Source: Priapulus caudatus
Lineage: Eukaryota > Priapulida > Priapulimorpha > Priapulimorphida > Priapulidae
Direction: 5' to 3'
Length of the DNA: 59,884 nt
NCBI RefSeq assembly: GCF_000485595.1
Contig: NW_014577289.1
Coordinates: forward strand, 67,149 to 127,032
Under the pieces are notes generated by a model. The model had not been told where the DNA came from. It saw only the letters and a list, made by a program, of their open reading frames with translations, and searched no databases. The translations under genes were made by a program, and so were the position numbers. Positions 948 through 35,467 of the stretch are shown here, one piece after another. Positions within the stretch are counted from its first letter, which is position 1. The number at the start of each line of letters is the position of its first letter.

Positions 948-1320
948 CAGGGTGCGAAATTGACGGGAGTCCGGAGTCAAATACTCCCTGATTTACTGTC
1001 GGACTCCCTGATTTGACATATGCAGGAGTCCGTGTGACTCCCTGAAAATTCTGCCATATACTAACTAGTTCGTTCCGGAGCATGACCTCGTGGAATTACT
1101 GTATTTTTTCAGCTAATTTCCAAATAAAATTTGGCAGACGTGCAACCGCATGCATCTTAAAAATAAGCACATGCGTTATTGTTAATATCTTTAATTTTGA
1201 ACCTCAGACTGCGGACTCCCTCATTTTGCTGCGGACTCCCTCATTTTGCTGCAGACTCCCACTTTTTGAGGGTAGGGAGCCCGTTTGACTCCCGTGTTCA
1301 AAAGTTAATTTCTACCCCTG
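948..1320 (+). mobile_element. Introner-family element, copy 1
   Basis: It begins CAGGGTGCGAAATT and ends AATTTCTACCCCTG, giving imperfect terminal inverted repeats (CAGGG...GAAATT). The flanks share TACTG (943-947, 1321-1325). The interior carries repeated GGACTCCCT motifs, three tandem units near 1205-1260. It is the same family as 34517-34857, which forms an intron. Here it sits in a TEX14-like intron, antisense to the gene, starting 10 bases inside the donor (GTATGT at 1331-1326 on the minus strand). Size is 373 bp against about 341 for the other copy, partly because of one more GGACTCCCT unit. Confidence 0.85.
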
Positions 1321-17139: not shown

Positions 17140-18166
17140 TACATTTGTTCTTTTACTAGTCCTGTGGAGTGTGGACTAATGAACTAAAATGGTTAGTATC
17201 TAACCCTGATATAGAGAGAGAGAAAGATAGATAATATCGTTTATATATAGATGAAATAGAAGAATGGTATTATCAAATTACGAATAATGATCATTAACCA
17301 TTTTACACTCAGTAAGGGTAGCAGTCAGAATTCAGTTATCAATTACTTGTCAATTGTCCATTGCTTAGTTTGGGGTTTTCGGTATGCCCCAGTAACCAAA
17401 ACAACTTGTTGTTAGCACTGACGCAGATAGTATACCTAAGCACAACTGAAGATCCACCTTGAAATTGATATGCACACAATAGGCTAATGGGAGCTTTTTG
17501 TGTCAGCTTGACCATGAAAATGCTGTGAAGACGAAATTGTTTGCAGAGCCACTATATATGCATGTCACAATGACACCCAAGAGCATGCTCACTTGTGTGT
17601 GTCTTAGTTTATTGAAATGGATGCATGTAAGTTTACACATTATTGGTTGCCTGTGGTGCAGTTAGTTGGTAGCAATGGGTGATAGTAGGTTTATAAAAAA
17701 TAAATTCCCCATCTGGCTGTGAGGTTTATTGGAGCACAGTTATTGCCTAAGATGTGGTTAATCTCAAACAGGAAGAGTGTTATAAGTGGGGTTATTGACA
17801 GGCATCTAATGTATATATTCAATAATGCAGCTAGTGAAGTGTTAGTGAAGCGTTTAGCAAATTACATTCACGTCGTGGTTCCTGTGTGAAATTAATTAAT
17901 TTCATGTGCTTACGTTACAAATTAATTCACAGTTTTGGGCGCTTTCCTAAAGTTTTTATGTCTGTAATTGTAGTCAGTAGTGTATTAGTTATTTTGTTCC
18001 TGACTCAACCTCGTTTGTCTAAAGTAACAAATATTTGATCAGTTCTGTTTTTCTGAATTATAACAATATTGTTCTCATCATTCGTGCGTGATGTGTGACT
18101 GTTTGTTTAGATATTAAAAATGTGATCAGTATTTTTCTCATTTACAATATAAATTTTTTGTGACCA
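17140..18166. other. Region upstream of the first zinc-finger gene
   Basis: AT-rich, no coding exon recognised. Likely promoter or 5'-UTR intron of the zinc-finger gene; an acceptor-like TTTTTTGTGACCAG ends at 18167. Confidence 0.4.
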
Positions 18167-18174
18167 GATTACCC

Positions 18175-18186
18175 ATGCTGTGCTGA
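18175..18186 (+). promoter_or_regulatory. Three-codon upstream ORF (ATGCTGTGCTGA)
   Basis: Start-to-stop mini-ORF ending 8 bases before the main ATG at 18195. If transcribed it would be read before the main frame and could lower or condition translation. Confidence 0.5.
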
Positions 18187-18194
18187 CAACGACC

Positions 18195-20147
18195 ATGGCA
18201 ACCGACGACGTGAAGAACAACGGCGCGATCGGATCAGATGGCGGCAGCGTGACGACTAGCGACTCTGAGATTAGCGACAAAGATGCCAACAAACTCGTGA
18301 TGGATCTAAAAGAAGACGACGGCGAGGAGGAGGAGGAGGAGCGGGACTCCGCTGCCAGCACGACGACCACCGACACCGACGGCGGCCCGATGGACGTCGA
18401 AGACGACGTCAACGTCGAACTGACGGCGTCGCCAAAGCCGTTCCCGGCGGCGACGAACAACAACAACGAGGAGACGCTGTTCATGTGCGACGTGTGCAAC
18501 GCGTCGTTCGCGGAGCCGGGCGGGCTCACGAAGCACGCGCAGACGCACACGCCGATCGTCGCCGAGAGCGTGTGCAACGTGTGCAGCGCCGGCTTCGTGA
18601 CGGCGCCGCTGCTCATGCGGCACATGCTGAAGCGGCACAGCTTCGGCGGCCTGAGCAAGTACCGCTGCCACATCTGCGCGAATGCGTACGTGTCGGCGTC
18701 GAGTCTGCGCAGCCACATGCGCGTGCACACGGGCGACCGGCCGTACCGCTGCGACGTCTGCGGCGAGGTGTTCTCGCACGCGGGCGCGCTCAAGCAGCAC
18801 ATGATCGTCATCCACACGAATGACAAGCCGCACGGCTGCGAGATCTGCGGCGAGGCGTTCAACAAGTTGAGCAACCTGACGCAGCACCGCAAGATGCACT
18901 GCGATGACGGGCCGTACTCATGCGACATGTGCAAGACGTTCTTCCACGAGCCGGACAGCTTCCTCGCGCACATCTGCTTCTGCGAGGCGCTCAAGTCGCA
19001 CACGTGCGCGCTGTGCAAGGTCGGCTTCTACCAGGCGTCGAGCCTCAAGTCTCACATGACGACACACCTCGACGGCACGCCGTATGCGTGCGAGATATGC
19101 AACGAGTCGTTCGCGCACTCGAGCGCGCTCATCCAGCACGCGAAGAGCCACGTCGACCGCGGCCCGTACGGCTGCGACCTCTGCGAGGCGTCCTTCACGG
19201 AGGCGAGCATCTTCGTGCGCCACGCGATCCTACACCGCGGCGAGCGGCGCTACAAGTGCGGCAGCTGCCCGGCGGCGTTCATCCAGCCGAGCACGCTCGA
19301 GGCGCACACGCCCGTCTGCACGCTGCGCAAGAAGGCGTTCGTCTGCACGACGTGCGACGCGACGTTCGTCGAGGCGGAGGCGCTGAAGAAGCACCGGCGC
19401 AACCACAGTCAGCGCTGCTTCGTCTGCGGCGAGACGTTCAGCTCGGCGCGCAGCCTCAAGCTGCACATGAAGATCCACACGTCGGACAAGCCGTTCAAGT
19501 GCAACGTGTGCGCGGCGTCGTTCACGTCGTCCGGCAGCCTGACGACGCACCACCGGACTCACACGGGCGAGCGGCCCTACAAGTGCGACATGTGCGCGGG
19601 CGCGTTCATCGACAAGAGCACGCTGACGAAGCACCGGCGCATCCACACAGGAGAGCGGCCATACAAGTGCGACCACTGCAGCGCCGCGTTCACGCAGTCG
19701 GGAAACCTGCTGCGCCACATCAAGCTGCGCCACCTCGTGAAAAAGTTGTCGCCGAAGGGCGGCGGCAGCATCCTCGCGAGTCAGCTGATGGCGAGCGAGA
19801 CGCCGACGAAAAAGGTCGTGCTCGGCCAGTCGCTCGACTGCAGCGTGTGCTACGCGACGTTCGCCTCGAAGGGCGGCCTCGCCAATCACTTCAAGACCCA
19901 CCTGTCCGGCGTCAAGCGGCACCAGTGCGAGGGCTGCGAGGAGTCGTTTAGCGACAAGAGCACGCTCATCAAGCACCGGAGGACGCATACGGGCGAGCGG
20001 CCGTTTAAGTGCAACCTGTGCCCCATGTCCTTCACTCAATCGGGCAACCTCCTCCGTCATATCAAAGCAAAGCACGACGGCTTGAAGATGCCAAAGAACG
20101 GTGCTCTGCTTCCGTCCTCGCCAGAGAGCCAGACGTCGGATGTCTAA
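18195..20147 (+). CDS. C2H2 zinc-finger protein, 18 fingers (ZNF-A)
   Basis: A 650-aa nuclear, probably DNA-binding protein in one GC-rich exon. ATG 18195 sits in GACCATGG, a good Kozak match; no earlier in-frame ATG exists. Residues 1-95 are acidic and low-complexity, with a run of six Glu near 44-49. From residue about 97 there are 18 C2H2 units; units 6 (FLAHICFC) and 10 (LEAHTPVC) end in Cys, i.e. C2HC. TGERPY/F-type linkers join units 13-15 and 17-18. A 33-residue spacer separates unit 15 from unit 16. Units 13-15 and 16-18 are a duplicated triad (helices SGSLTTH or KGGLANH, DKSTLTKH or DKSTLIKH, QSGNLLRH). The same last triad ends the protein at 33166-35467, so the two are paralogues. 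Orthologue and target unknown; no KRAB, BTB or SET domain is visible. Confidence 0.93.
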   Translation: MATDDVKNNGAIGSDGGSVTTSDSEISDKDANKLVMDLKEDDGEEEEEERDSAASTTTTDTDGGPMDVEDDVNVELTASPKPFPAATNNNNEETLFMCDVCNASFAEPGGLTKHAQTHTPIVAESVCNVCSAGFVTAPLLMRHMLKRHSFGGLSKYRCHICANAYVSASSLRSHMRVHTGDRPYRCDVCGEVFSHAGALKQHMIVIHTNDKPHGCEICGEAFNKLSNLTQHRKMHCDDGPYSCDMCKTFFHEPDSFLAHICFCEALKSHTCALCKVGFYQASSLKSHMTTHLDGTPYACEICNESFAHSSALIQHAKSHVDRGPYGCDLCEASFTEASIFVRHAILHRGERRYKCGSCPAAFIQPSTLEAHTPVCTLRKKAFVCTTCDATFVEAEALKKHRRNHSQRCFVCGETFSSARSLKLHMKIHTSDKPFKCNVCAASFTSSGSLTTHHRTHTGERPYKCDMCAGAFIDKSTLTKHRRIHTGERPYKCDHCSAAFTQSGNLLRHIKLRHLVKKLSPKGGGSILASQLMASETPTKKVVLGQSLDCSVCYATFASKGGLANHFKTHLSGVKRHQCEGCEESFSDKSTLIKHRRTHTGERPFKCNLCPMSFTQSGNLLRHIKAKHDGLKMPKNGALLPSSPESQTSDV

Positions 20148-28001: not shown

Positions 28002-30666
28002 TAGCGCTCTTGTAGCGCCGCCGTAGAATACAGTAAGTAGTAATGTAATATGGCATGAGTGTGTTAGCGTGCGTGCTGCGACTTGGGATTGCTAGAGATT
28101 CCGTTTCCTCAGCTGCCTCCGTTTGCTCGCATTTGGCTGGCTTGCGCAACTAAATAGACGATTCCAAGAATTTGGGAGAGTGGCTGTTGAATTGAGCTAG
28201 TTGAGGGGATGAATCGGAGTGGAGTGTACCCCATGCAGTGATTTTTTCTACAGAGAAATGCGACAGAAATTCAATAGCACACGGATTTTAAAAGTTCTTT
28301 CAAAATATGACAGTGAAACAAACTGTCACATGGGGGTTCTGGTTTCCTGCGACCAGCCCTGTAGTGTTAGTGCTGCGGTCAGCTACTGCCTAATTGTGTG
28401 GTGATACATCTGCTGCTGCTACTGTTGCTGCGCTGGCTATTGGTGGTTGTGTTGTGATGTTGATGTTGTTGTTGTTGCTACTACTGCTGTTCACCATACT
28501 ACTATTAATAGTTTCCCACCCACTGATGTTACTAAGTACTGCAATATCCCAGAAGCTTGCCATGGTTAACAAAACATTTCAAGAAAACAAGATACTCAGT
28601 CACTTTTCAAAACACCTGGCTGCAAACATTTTCCTTAGAGACAAATAAAATATAGCCTCGAGGGGTAAACATTCAAATAAAAGTCCTGCCACTGTTAGCC
28701 CAACTCTGGTCAAAACTAAAGAATGATCAGTCTAGTCTAAGTCCAGATAACAAGCAATTCCAGCTATAGAATATTAATGTATCGTTGGCCGATTTTACAG
28801 GGCAACCACTGAACAGAGAAAGTTAGATAAAGGCATTTTTATTACGCCCAAAACAGTGCATGAAACAAGAAAACAACACATGAATAGACAGTGTATCACA
28901 TACTAAAACAATGTGCACTAAAAATGTCTTGCATCAAATAATGCACTTTCTTGGTCCACAGAACTAAAAACTATAAAAGCTTAAAATGTTATGTACTGTA
29001 GTCGTCTTAAAAAGTAAGGCCACAATTTCCAGTCACTTCTATTTTCATTCGTACATAAAATCACACCATATCATGTACAAACTTATCACAAGTTTCCAAT
29101 ATTCCTAGGTAATGCACTATTGAATCTATTAGAATGTCAATTATTTTAATGGATTATAAAACATGTATGTGGAATGACATTAAATTTTCTATTCCACCCT
29201 GTAGTTTGTCACCATTATAATATATGCTTGCATCAATACTCTAAACTGGCGGAAGTACTGCCTGGTTATGCATAATTTACAGGTACAACTACAAGTATAG
29301 GGCAACCTATAATGATTTCTACCTGAATGGACTCTACAAGTATTATGTAAATATATAGTTGAAGCTCATTTGTTTACATAATTTTCTTCCTTTCTAAAAC
29401 TACACTTCCACCACTAGGTCGATGTCCTATTTGCCTAAGCATCGTCAAGTAACAAACTAAAAACTAATCATACAATATTACCAAAATAAAAACAATGAGT
29501 CTTATGGCAAAATGAATGGAAAAGGCTCATACATGTAAAGAACCATATCAAAATGGGAATGGATATATCAATGCAGTGAGCAATCACGGTAGCAATGAAG
29601 GCTTCTTTATATCATTTACATCATATAAAGCGCCCAGTATTATTCACATAGACTGGACTGCGTACGTGGCTCTTTAACAAATATTTTGGCCAGGCTTATA
29701 TACATGTATACTTATCCTGAGTTGATTTCACAAAAATATACGATTCGGGTCTGGCCCCAACAATTTGTTAAGGAGAATACACTGTGGATTTTTGGCTAAG
29801 GGAGCAGGAATTATGGCCAGTGACGCACACCGCAACTGCCATAAAATCAAGGTCAAATCCATTACGAACCGCTCTCCTTCACTGCTTACAATAACATAGA
29901 TCCAAGCTTATTGCTGTTTACAAGGAGATCCCCTGAAAGCCTGCGCCGCTACAAAAACTAGTGTGTCCGTTAGGCTTACATGCCCACACACACACACACA
30001 TGCAGTCTATAACTGTAACGATTTAAAATATGCTGTAATCCTACTGCTATAACTACATCTGTAGTAAGGGCGCACTCAAAGGCATTGGTTTGCCACATAG
30101 ACACACATCTGACTGTGCATTGTGCCCTTATCTATCACAAGTAGGATGACAAGTGGACCTTTTAGAGTGAACTTCAACCCTAACCTCTGCCGGAGGAAAG
30201 TTTTAAATACACATGAGCATCACAGTGGTGAGTGCCCATACCACCCACTGCAACATCTCAATCAGAGGTGAGAACATGATATAATTTATATCTGCCAATA
30301 TATAGGTGCAACCTAGTGCAAGCCTGCTTGGTCCAAATACAAAAAACGTAAACAAAGACGATGATTGGCGAACGGCATAATCGAAACCCCCACCGGTGTA
30401 ACATTCCTAGGGTCACAAATTGTTGCACATGGATTGAGAAACCATGCCGATATGTTGAAGATAAAAATAATGTGCAATCTAGCAAAACATCTCTCTGAAT
30501 ATAAAAAATATTAGGCACTACATCAACCCATCTATGAAGAGGAATGTTTTATGCATTGTTGTCATGCTTACACGCGTCACATCAACTGTTAGCGTTGAAG
30601 TTGTAACAACAGACATGAAAGCCGATCCCATACATCTGTTTGGCAGGGTGGCAATGTCTTACATTT

Positions 30667-31294
30667 NNNNNNNNNNNNNNNNNNNNNNNNNNNNNNNNNN
30701 NNNNNNNNNNNNNNNNNNNNNNNNNNNNNNNNNNNNNNNNNNNNNNNNNNNNNNNNNNNNNNNNNNNNNNNNNNNNNNNNNNNNNNNNNNNNNNNNNNNN
30801 NNNNNNNNNNNNNNNNNNNNNNNNNNNNNNNNNNNNNNNNNNNNNNNNNNNNNNNNNNNNNNNNNNNNNNNNNNNNNNNNNNNNNNNNNNNNNNNNNNNN
30901 NNNNNNNNNNNNNNNNNNNNNNNNNNNNNNNNNNNNNNNNNNNNNNNNNNNNNNNNNNNNNNNNNNNNNNNNNNNNNNNNNNNNNNNNNNNNNNNNNNNN
31001 NNNNNNNNNNNNNNNNNNNNNNNNNNNNNNNNNNNNNNNNNNNNNNNNNNNNNNNNNNNNNNNNNNNNNNNNNNNNNNNNNNNNNNNNNNNNNNNNNNNN
31101 NNNNNNNNNNNNNNNNNNNNNNNNNNNNNNNNNNNNNNNNNNNNNNNNNNNNNNNNNNNNNNNNNNNNNNNNNNNNNNNNNNNNNNNNNNNNNNNNNNNN
31201 NNNNNNNNNNNNNNNNNNNNNNNNNNNNNNNNNNNNNNNNNNNNNNNNNNNNNNNNNNNNNNNNNNNNNNNNNNNNNNNNNNNNNNNNNNNNNN
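30667..31294. other. Assembly gap (628 N)
   Basis: Run of N. Frames drawn across it are meaningless. Confidence 1.
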
Positions 31295-31366
31295 ATTTCT
31301 GTGCAGTAGCTTGCGTGAAGTTAATTTGCGTGGAATAATTAGGCGACATACTATAGTAAACTACGC
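31295..31366 (-). repeat. Inverted copy of spacer segment 25400-25475
   Basis: ATTTCTGTGCAGTAGCTTGC... matches the complement of 25400-25475 with a few indels, then diverges. It begins exactly at the gap edge. Confidence 0.75.
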
Positions 31367-33127: not shown

Positions 33128-33157
33128 ACTGAAAGCTTTGGACTATAGTTCTTCACT

Positions 33158-33169
33158 ATGGTCACATGA
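33158..33169 (+). promoter_or_regulatory. Three-codon upstream ORF overlapping the ZNF-B start
   Basis: ATGGTCACATGA: its stop TGA (33167-33169) overlaps the main ATG at 33166 and the next ATG at 33169. Such an overlap favours termination-reinitiation or start-site competition. Confidence 0.5.
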
Positions 33170-34511
33170 TGGCTCCTGGCGTGAACACAAAAGAGCAGCA
33201 AGAACCCGCTTTGGTATACGGGTCGTCTCGAGAGGATTCATCATTTGCTAACATTAGACCGTTTCTGAATGTAGTGACGAGTAATTCTGAAAAATACACT
33301 GCCCATCAAAAAGGCGAGAACAGCAATGTCTCGCCTGGCCAACGAGAGGACAGTGAAAGTGACGAAGACCAGCTAGTCATCGACGTTGCTCGTGATGACA
33401 AAGATGATGGTAATACGTGCATCAGTACCACCAATGCCAATGGCAATGCATGTGATAAGACGTCAGTTCCGACTGGACTTAATCGAAAATCCGATCTCTG
33501 TGATTCAAACTCGGGCAGGATCGCCTCGACAACAGACATGGAAACGGAAGACAGCGTGCAGCCTGTTGCTCCCCAGAGTGAAGCCCTGCCAAAAAGGCCA
33601 ACTCCCACATTGCAGAAAGGGTTCATCTGCGGGCTGTGCAGGGGAGCGCACGCCACGTTCAATGACCTAGCCGCGCACATGGAAGTCCACAAGCAGACTC
33701 CGCACTCTACGGTGTACACGTGCGCCAACTGTAAGCGCGTGTTCTGCGACAGCGTCATCTATCAAAACCACATGACTCTGTCGTCTTGCTGCAACGTCTG
33801 CCAGTCGGTATTCGGCAGCTCGACGAAGCTGCATCAGCACAAGCTGCAGCAGCACAAGCAGCAGCAGCCCAAGCCGCAGCAGCCCAAGCCGCAGCAGCAC
33901 AAGCAGCAGCAGCACAAGCCGCAGCAGCACAAGCAGCAGCAGCACAAGCAGTGCGCGCACGCGGTCCGCTCGCCGCAGACACCGCTGCTGCGTTGCCACT
34001 TCAAGTTCAGCTGCTCGCTGACGTTCACGTCGCGCGCCGCGCTGCGGCAGCACCTGTGGTCGCGGCACGCGGAGATTCGCGAGGCGCGGGGCTGCGAGAT
34101 CTGCGGCGAGGCGTGCGAACGCGCCAGCTGCCTCGCGCAGCACAAACTCTCGCACCGCGCCGACGGGCCGTACGCGTGCGACGTGTGCAGCGAGCCGTTC
34201 GCCGACATGTTCAACTTCTTCCAGCACATGAACACGCACCGCGGCGGGGAGCACCTGCACGTCTGCCCCGTCTGCACGGTGGCCTTCATCCAGGAGAGTG
34301 CGCTGCTGCTGCACATGACCTCGCACAACCGCGAGAAGCCGTACGGCTGCAAGATATGCGGCGCCATCTACGCGAGCGCGCTCGACCTTGCCGACCACGA
34401 GGCGACGCACTCGGGCCACGGTTCCTTCGTCATGGAAGTGTTCCGACTGGCGTTCGACGAGAACGCGCGCGGGCCGGTGAAGCGAGCGCAGCTCGAGAGG
34501 GTTGACCACAG
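33166..34511 (+). CDS. ZNF-B exon with start codon
   Basis: Ends GTTGACCACAG|GTACAG. Reading on past the donor meets a stop at 34528-34530 inside the inserted element, so an unspliced transcript would lose the last five finger-like units. Confidence 0.9.
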
Positions 34512-35467
34512 GTACAGGATGCGAAATTAATGCGAGTCCGGAGTCGAATACTCCCTGATTTACTGTCGGACTCCCTGATTTGACATGTGTAGGAGTCCGT
34601 GCGACTCCCTGAAAATTCTGTTATACTAACTAGTTCGTTCCAGAGCACGGCCTCGCGGAAATACCGTATTTTTTTAGCAAATGTCCAAAGAAAATTTGGC
34701 AGACGTGCAACCGCATTAATCTTCAAAATAAGCACATTTTTATATTTTTAGTTTTGAACTTCAGACTGCGGACTCCCTTGTTTTGCTGCGGACTCCCTCT
34801 TTTTGAGGGCAGGGAGTCCATCGGACTCTCTTGTTCACAAATTAATTTCTACCTCTGCAGGTACATGTGTGACATCTGCTTCGTGTCGTTCGAGAGCCCC
34901 AAGGCGATCGCGAATCACGTGGTCTCGCACGAGAACGACTCGTTCAAGAGGAAGGTTCTGCCGAGCCACCCGCGCACGCAACGCCTGCCCAGCGTGCTGA
35001 AGCCGGTCGCTCCCAAGCCGACATCTCTCCGCTACAAGTGTTCCTGCTGCGATCTGATTTACAACGATCGAAATCAGATGCTCAATCACACCTGCATGAA
35101 GAGATACAAGACTCTGCTGCGGGTTGCCGACCAAGACAACATCAGGAAGAAGAAATCGGTGTCCTCGACGAATCTTCCCGAACCCCTGCGACCGTACAAA
35201 TGTGATCTTTGCCCGGCCGCCTTCACAACGTCGGGTAGCCTGACGACGCACACGCGAACACACACGGGCGAGCGACCCTTCACCTGTGCGCTCTGCAAGA
35301 GTTCGTTCATCGACCGCAGCACGCTGACTAAGCACACGCGCGTGCATACGGGCGAGCGGCCGTACAAGTGCGACGTGTGTGACGCCGCCTTCACACAGTC
35401 TGGAAACCTTCTCCGACACATACGCCTGCTGCATCTAGAGAAGAAAGGCAGGGCAGGTTTGACATGA
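33166..35467 (+). CDS. C2H2 zinc-finger protein with introner intron (ZNF-B)
   Basis: Two coding exons, 33166-34511 and 34861-35467, total 1953 bases = 650 aa, exactly as long as ZNF-A. Residues 1-145 are acidic/low-complexity (SESDEDQLVIDV). Then come degenerate fingers (FICGLCRGAHATF..., YTCANCKRVF..., NVCQSVFGSS...), a Gln/His/Lys/Pro repeat, five more fingers (GCEICGEAC..., YACDVCSEPF..., HVCPVCTVAF..., YGCKICGAIY... and an atypical one before), one finger right after the intron (YMCDICFVSFESPKAIANH), a partial finger (YKCSCCDLIYNDRNQMLNH), and a terminal triad (SGSLTTH, DRSTLTKH, QSGNLLRH) nearly identical to ZNF-A. Either ATG 33166 or 33169 may start it (MM). The intron is phase 2 and cuts codon AGG of Arg in HRYMCD. 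Nuclear DNA-binding role inferred; targets unknown. Confidence 0.92.
33828..33954 (+). repeat. Coding minisatellite (Gln/His/Lys/Pro)
   Basis: 15/30-base units CAGCAGCACAAGCAG and CAGCAGCCCAAGCCG, encoding QQHKQ and QQPKP alternations inside the zinc-finger protein. It separates the degenerate N-terminal fingers from the main array. Confidence 0.9.
34512..34860 (+). mobile_element. Introner: transposable element acting as a spliceosomal intron
   Basis: Element 34517-34857 (GGATGCGAAATTAAT ... ATTAATTTCTACCTCTG) is flanked by identical 8-mers CAGGTACA at 34509-34516 and 34858-34865. The donor (CAG|GTACA) lies in the left duplication and the acceptor (CTCTGCAG|GTACA) is completed by the right one. 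Net insertion (element plus one duplication) is 349 bases, exactly the intron length, so splicing recreates the empty site. If the element is taken to start at CAGGATG (34515), as hAT-like ends suggest, the duplication is CAGGTA, 6 bp. The second copy at 948-1320 proves it is a repeat. Pyrimidine-rich ATTTCTACCTCTGCAG acts as the 3' splice tract. Confidence 0.9.
34861..35467 (+). CDS. ZNF-B final exon
   Basis: Starts |GTACATGTGTGAC, completing the Arg codon, and encodes the post-intron finger, a partial finger and the terminal triad with TGERPF/Y linkers. Stop TGA 35465-35467. Confidence 0.9.

What the first reader, a model, noticed from the sequence alone, without database searches (positions are those of the whole stretch)
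34505..34870. A transposable element that is an exact, functional intron (introner) in a zinc-finger gene
Seen: CAGGTACA flanks a 341-base element with GAAATTAAT inverted ends. Splicing CAG|GT...AG|GTACA removes 349 bases, exactly element plus one target duplication, and restores frame and finger (HRYMCDICFVSF...H). Known: introner elements described in algae and other eukaryotes create introns by duplicating targets that contain AGGT. Here the donor comes from the left duplication and the acceptor from the right one. The repeat also exists elsewhere in this window, so it is mobile. This looks like an active or recent intron-generating family in an animal.
Basis: partly seen in the sequence, partly recalled or inferred. 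Interest (0 to 1): 0.95.

Follow-up and report, generated by a model that had tools for sequence, protein, structure and literature searches.

The report
Jumping DNA spliced out as intron
In the penis worm Priapulus caudatus, a short mobile DNA element that landed in a zinc-finger gene appears to be cut out of the messenger RNA exactly, so that the insertion became a new intron instead of breaking the gene, and the same kind of element seems to have done this in two other genes of this animal.

Summary
Window 34515-34857 is a 343-bp miniature inverted-repeat transposon (CAGG...CTG ends, 6-bp target duplication CAGGTA) inside a zinc-finger coding sequence that is otherwise one open frame. Splicing CAG|GT...AG|G (34512-34860, 349 bp) removes the element plus one duplication and restores the frame. 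The genome is Priapulus caudatus: an NCBI protein model is identical across the junction. The family is an ordinary high-copy MITE: 832 exact left ends. Two more copies sit in coding exons at AAG|GT, in purine nucleoside phosphorylase and group XV phospholipase A2. Exact excision restores both frames, and NCBI's P. caudatus models agree. Seven other sense-AGGT copies are not coding introns; one of them sits on an existing donor. So this is introner-type intron gain by a hAT-like MITE that takes both splice dinucleotides from its duplicated target. Not shown: spliced reads, present activity (45 copies are 2.6-7.0% from consensus, this one the most diverged), an empty site in another individual, the transposase. 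The mechanism is in print for other lineages; my searches found no report for Priapulus. New member of a known kind.

The parts
33166..34511 (+). Zinc-finger gene, coding sequence up to the donor
   Evidence: Open frame 33133-34530; protein equals P0001 at the junction
34509..34514 (+). Left target duplication CAGGTA; holds the donor CAG|GT
34512..34860 (+). Intron, 349 bp, GT...AG = element plus one duplication
   Evidence: Frame restored on removal; NCBI model P0001 identical across it
34515..34857 (+). MITE, 343 bp, ends CAGGATGCGAAATTAAT and ATTAATTTCTACCTCTG
   Evidence: Shared ends with the copy at 948-1320 and with genome copies
34840..34857 (+). Right end of the element: TTAAT and a pyrimidine-rich stretch before the acceptor (branch/tract role inferred)
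   Evidence: Sequence
34858..34863 (+). Right target duplication CAGGTA; holds the acceptor AG (34859-34860)
34861..35467 (+). Zinc-finger gene, coding sequence after the acceptor, to the stop
948..1320 (+). Second copy of the element, not in a recognised coding sequence; TSD TACTG at 943-947 and 1321-1325
18153..20144 (+). Zinc-finger paralogue, one open frame through the place homologous to the intron (control)
   Evidence: 34% identity over 472 aligned columns

Best explanation
A non-autonomous, hAT-like MITE inserted into the exonic sequence CAGGTA of a zinc-finger gene. The 6-bp duplication put one AG|GT on each side; the left copy serves as donor and the right copy as acceptor, so the spliceosome removes the element plus one duplication and the mRNA is unchanged. 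The element's ends add context: where the duplication ends in GT its first bases CAGG make a donor GTCAGG (A at +4, G at +5); here the donor is GTACAG. Its last bases TTAATTTCTACCYCTG give branch-like and pyrimidine-rich sequence before the AG. The same family did this in a PNP gene and a group XV PLA2 gene. Shown: element, duplications, three exact in-frame excisions, three agreeing gene models, high copy number. Inferred: splicing in the cell, mobilisation by a hAT transposase, and selection as the reason why the coding copies seen sit at AGGT.
For: Exact element and TSD; frame restored at three genes; NCBI P. caudatus models P0001, P0123, P0241 continuous across the three junctions; Pfam PNP_UDP_1 and LCAT domains run across two of them; relatives P0002 and P0121 and the window paralogue are continuous; 832 exact left ends.
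Against: No reads seen; NCBI models can be drawn without read support. The ZnF donor GTACAG is weak on a generic recalled table (4.2 of 12.6 bits). P0001 is 36 aa shorter than the frame here, in the Q/H-rich part before the junction. 10 of 45 copies have 5-bp and 12 no perfect duplication; both other coding cases have 5 bp. No transposase with these ends was found.
Confidence: 0.9

Rival explanations
1. Disruptive insertion: the element is not spliced, the frame ends shortly inside it (...HRYRMRN*), the later fingers are lost, and the frame restoration is chance.
For: Weak generic donor score; no reads seen; zinc-finger genes are often redundant (a paralogue lies 13 kb upstream).
Against: Exact restoration in three genes, three agreeing NCBI models. 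Only 9 of 1948 sense 6-mers of the ZnF coding sequence and 12 of 964 of PNP contain AGGT; PNP was found without regard to AGGT.
Confidence: 0.06
2. An older intron stood here and the MITE later landed inside it.
For: Copies do lie in introns near exons (L023, L047, L053, L077), and L048 sits on an existing donor.
Against: Nothing of an older intron remains: the intron is the element plus one 6-bp duplication. The paralogue and relative P0002 are continuous at the place, though P0002 may come from RNA.
Confidence: 0.03
3. A specialised introner that targets AGGT in genes.
For: Of 10 distinct sense-AGGT copies found, 3 are coding introns and 1 sits on a donor.
Against: AGGT next to exact left ends in 4 of 832, against 504 of 59879 6-mers of the window: no preference. 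In a sample of 42 copies taken without regard to AGGT, 40 showed no coding insertion, by a frame test that misses short exons.
Confidence: 0.05

Closest known systems
Introners of Florenciella sp. (PMC9860276, Results section read, Fig. 2E legend)
   Same: Introner that carries neither splice site and takes both from the insertion site; exact excision
   Different: A microalga (recalled); family there not compared by sequence. Here most copies seen are not introns
AGGT transposon-insertion model of intron gain (PMC3443670, passages read)
   Same: Insertion into AGGT, duplication gives donor and acceptor, mRNA unchanged; listed for Oryza, Drosophila, Oikopleura, Zea
   Different: General model; not this element or phylum
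Maize Ds intron (Giroux et al. 1994; title seen in the reference list of PMC3443670, paper not held)
   Same: hAT-type element (recalled) that acts as a new intron
   Different: Plant; single allele; details recalled only
Notothenioid slc26a2 introns (PMC12357937, passages read)
   Same: Recently gained introns in an animal made of repeats found elsewhere in the genome
   Different: The terms 'target site duplication' and 'introner' do not occur in its main text

Membership tests
Introner (intron-generating transposable element, PMC9860276) | Several introns with similar sequence, similarity reaching the splice boundaries | tested here: met
   Three coding introns of one family, similarity up to the duplications
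Introner (intron-generating transposable element, PMC9860276) | Insertion into exonic sequence creates the intron (no older intron) | tested here: met
   Exact TSDs; continuous paralogue and relatives; genomic empty sites in relatives not seen
Introner (intron-generating transposable element, PMC9860276) | Intron is spliced in the cell | not testable with these tools
   No reads; NCBI protein models only
Introner (intron-generating transposable element, PMC9860276) | Enriched in genes (seen in 161 of 175 genomes there) | not tested
   Gene map not available; no AGGT preference seen
MITE | Short, non-coding, inverted ends, TSD, many copies | tested here: met
   343 bp here, 832 exact left ends, 42 of 45 copies CAG...CTG, 33 of 45 with perfect 5-6 bp TSD
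hAT superfamily | TSD of 8 bp as a rule, 5-6 bp in some subgroups (recalled) | tested here: inconclusive
   TSD 6 bp in 23 and 5 bp in 10 of 45 copies; ends CAGGG...CCCTG fit (recalled)
hAT superfamily | hAT transposase with the same ends | tested here: inconclusive

The most novel reading that the evidence does not exclude
An unspecialised high-copy MITE whose ends happen to complete splice signals (CAGG for +4/+5 of the donor, TTAATTTCTACCCCTG before the acceptor) has been a standing source of new introns in priapulid worms: exonic landings on AGGT are tolerated, most others are purged, and many more such introns of this and sister families sit in the genome. It would be the first intron-generating transposon family known to me in this phylum.
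Probability: 0.45. Interest if true: 0.72.

Novelty: new member of a known kind. Interest (0 to 1): 0.62.

Why it matters
How new introns arise is an old question, and PMC9860276 reports introners in only two groups among animals and land plants, both animals (it names copepods). A priapulid family with exactly spliced copies next to hundreds of other copies would let one measure what share of exonic hits survives and whether survival depends on landing on AGGT.

Tried and rejected
Rejected: 8-bp TSD and 341-bp element. Rejected as coding insertions: L023 and L047 (an exon starts after an ordinary acceptor downstream of the element) and L053 (intronic; long frames are simple repeats and N). 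Not this family by BLAST: L054, L072, L073, L074; L052 keeps only a 35-bp end. Sense-AGGT copies that are not coding introns: L048 (on an existing donor), L050, L071, L076, L078 (no frame), L077 (in an intron), L075 (beside a run of N, cannot be judged). Reverse-oriented AGGT copies L052, L053, L055, L056, L057: none recognised as coding; L052 and L057 judged by eye and a frame listing. P0147, a partial P. caudatus PNP model, does not align well at the PNP junction and was not used. P0249 has a one-residue gap just before the PLA2G15 junction. Multiplying AGGT chances over ZnF and PNP was dropped, because the ZnF case was chosen for its AGGT. The frame test (joined stretch of at most 1800 bases) is weak for short exons: the PLA2G15 exon would have passed as unremarkable. 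Dropped before the count of 45 copies: L050 (split alignment) and partial second hits in L028 and L039. A plasmid search gave no match; a bacterial promoter scan was irrelevant.

Literature: no held paper has 'Priapulus caudatus' with 'introner'; the one with 'Priapulus' and 'intron gain' concerns minor introns; one search gave none on Priapulus. The supplements of PMC9860276 could not be read, so Priapulus may be listed there. A DOI that I recalled for a 2025 paper on introner transfer is not held, nor is Giroux 1994.

Full report
What is there. The region reads ...GACCA CAGGTA [CAGGATGCGAAATTAAT ... ATTAATTTCTACCTCTG] CAGGTA CATGTG.... A second copy at 948-1320 is 81.5% identical and stops at the same two ends, so the element is 34515-34857 and the duplication 6 bp. 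Of 45 copies aligned from the genome, 23 have a perfect 6-bp and 10 a perfect 5-bp duplication, 12 neither; some of these are in TA repeats and say little. 42 of 45 start with CAG and end with CTG.

Genome and family. The window lies in a 385-Mb assembly of 2952 contigs. The protein obtained by splicing is identical over query residues 290-600 to an NCBI model of Priapulus caudatus (P0001), which names the animal. P0001 has 614 aa against 650 here; it lacks about 36 residues in and after the Q/H-rich stretch, before the junction. The left end CAGGRTGCGAAATT occurs 832 times, the reversed control 2 times. Copies are 2.6-7.0% from their consensus; the zinc-finger copy is the most diverged, 7.0%, the PNP copy 5.7%. 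This is an expanded MITE family with no sign of present activity. The genome has 144 matches to the hAT dimerisation domain among 150 scored candidates, but none was tied to these ends, so I call the element hAT-like.

The intron. Excising 34512-34860 leaves 1953 coding bases with C2H2 fingers on both sides and the finger YMCDICFVSFESPKAIANHVVSH directly after the junction. Relative P0002 (52% identity; source 'lgn', DNA or RNA unknown) aligns through the junction without a gap. A paralogue 13 kb upstream (18153-20144) is one open frame through the homologous place. A search with the part of the gene after the intron found itself at 100% and otherwise only partial zinc-finger matches at 68-85%, so no second allele is in the assembly.

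Two more coding introns. In the sample of best-matching copies, fetched without regard to target site (39 of the 40 full matches, the 40th being this copy), L012 on C1465 lies in a purine nucleoside phosphorylase gene that is otherwise one open frame: TSD AAGGT, and excision at AAG|GT restores a 361-codon stop-to-stop frame. The Pfam domain runs across the junction. The P. caudatus NCBI model P0123 (188 aa, ending early further on) and relative P0121 (74%) are continuous there. A search for sense AGGT next to a relaxed left end gave 9 places, control 1: the 4 of the exact search and 5 new, of which 2 are this family (L070, L071). L070 on C83 lies in a group XV phospholipase A2 gene, AAG|GT again, restoring ...NGNHK|VVLLCHSMGN.... 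The LCAT domain runs across, and the P. caudatus model P0241 is identical across it; of four other animals aligned (4 of the 119 other hits listed), three are ungapped at the place and P0249 has a one-residue gap just before it. This gene has ordinary introns as well. So: three coding insertions, three exact excisions, three agreeing gene models. Introns are 349 bp (ZnF), 356 (PNP) and 406 (PLA2G15).

Where AGGT copies lie. Distinct sense-AGGT copies of the family found by left ends or right ends (6 hits, 4 new): 10. Three are the coding introns; L048 sits on the donor of an existing intron, ATGCAG|GT; L050, L071, L076 and L078 show no coding frame; L077 is intronic; L075 lies beside a run of N. 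Reverse-oriented AGGT: 6 hits, 5 with family sequence (L052 only a remnant), none recognised as coding. AGGT is not favoured as target: 4 of 832 exact left ends against 504 of 59879 6-mers of the window. In the AGGT-blind sample of 42 copies (those fetched, a second copy in L014, and the two window copies), ZnF (given) and PNP are coding, both at AGGT; the other 40 showed no coding insertion by a frame test, nine of them read by eye. That test would miss short exons. The reading is a filter on what survives, not targeting; the numbers are small.

How it works. Donor GT and acceptor AG both come from the duplication, so excision is exact by construction. The ends add context: in PNP and PLA2G15 the donor is AAG|GTCAGG; on a generic recalled table PNP scores 7.2 and the ZnF donor CAG|GTACAG 4.2 of 12.6 bits. 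At L048 the left, element-flanked donor scores 7.4 and the old one 0.3. The right end supplies TTAAT and a pyrimidine-rich stretch before the AG. Splicing in the cell is inferred.

Known or new. The AGGT model is in print (PMC3443670, passages), and introners that take both splice sites from the target are described for Florenciella (PMC9860276, Results section read). That paper has introners in two animal groups and names copepods. I found no paper on introners in Priapulus in the library; supplements and most subscription papers were out of reach. Hence: a new member of a known kind, with unusually clean anatomy, in a phylum where I know of none.

Noticed in passing
L048 / L058 (G000:C4, 237632, - strand): A short, internally deleted copy (about 125 bp) sits with a duplicated CAGGT exactly on the donor of an existing intron; the element-flanked donor scores better than the old one on a generic table.
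   Followed up: partly
window 18153-20144: A zinc-finger paralogue in one open frame, 13 kb upstream of the intron-bearing gene on the same strand: probably an old tandem duplication.
   Followed up: partly
window 33840-33955: A tandem Q/H/K/P-rich repeat inside the zinc-finger coding sequence; the NCBI model lacks about 36 residues in and after it.
   Followed up: no
L054, L072, L073, L074: Other repeats share the AGGT-plus-end motif (CAGGGGTAGAAATT or CAGNNTGYRAAATT) but no body with this family: possibly sister families with similar ends.
   Followed up: no
L023, L047, L053, L077: Copies lie in introns close to exons, so the family is frequent near genes.
   Followed up: no
window about 30660-31300: A run of N: a gap in the assembly upstream of the zinc-finger gene.
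   Followed up: no
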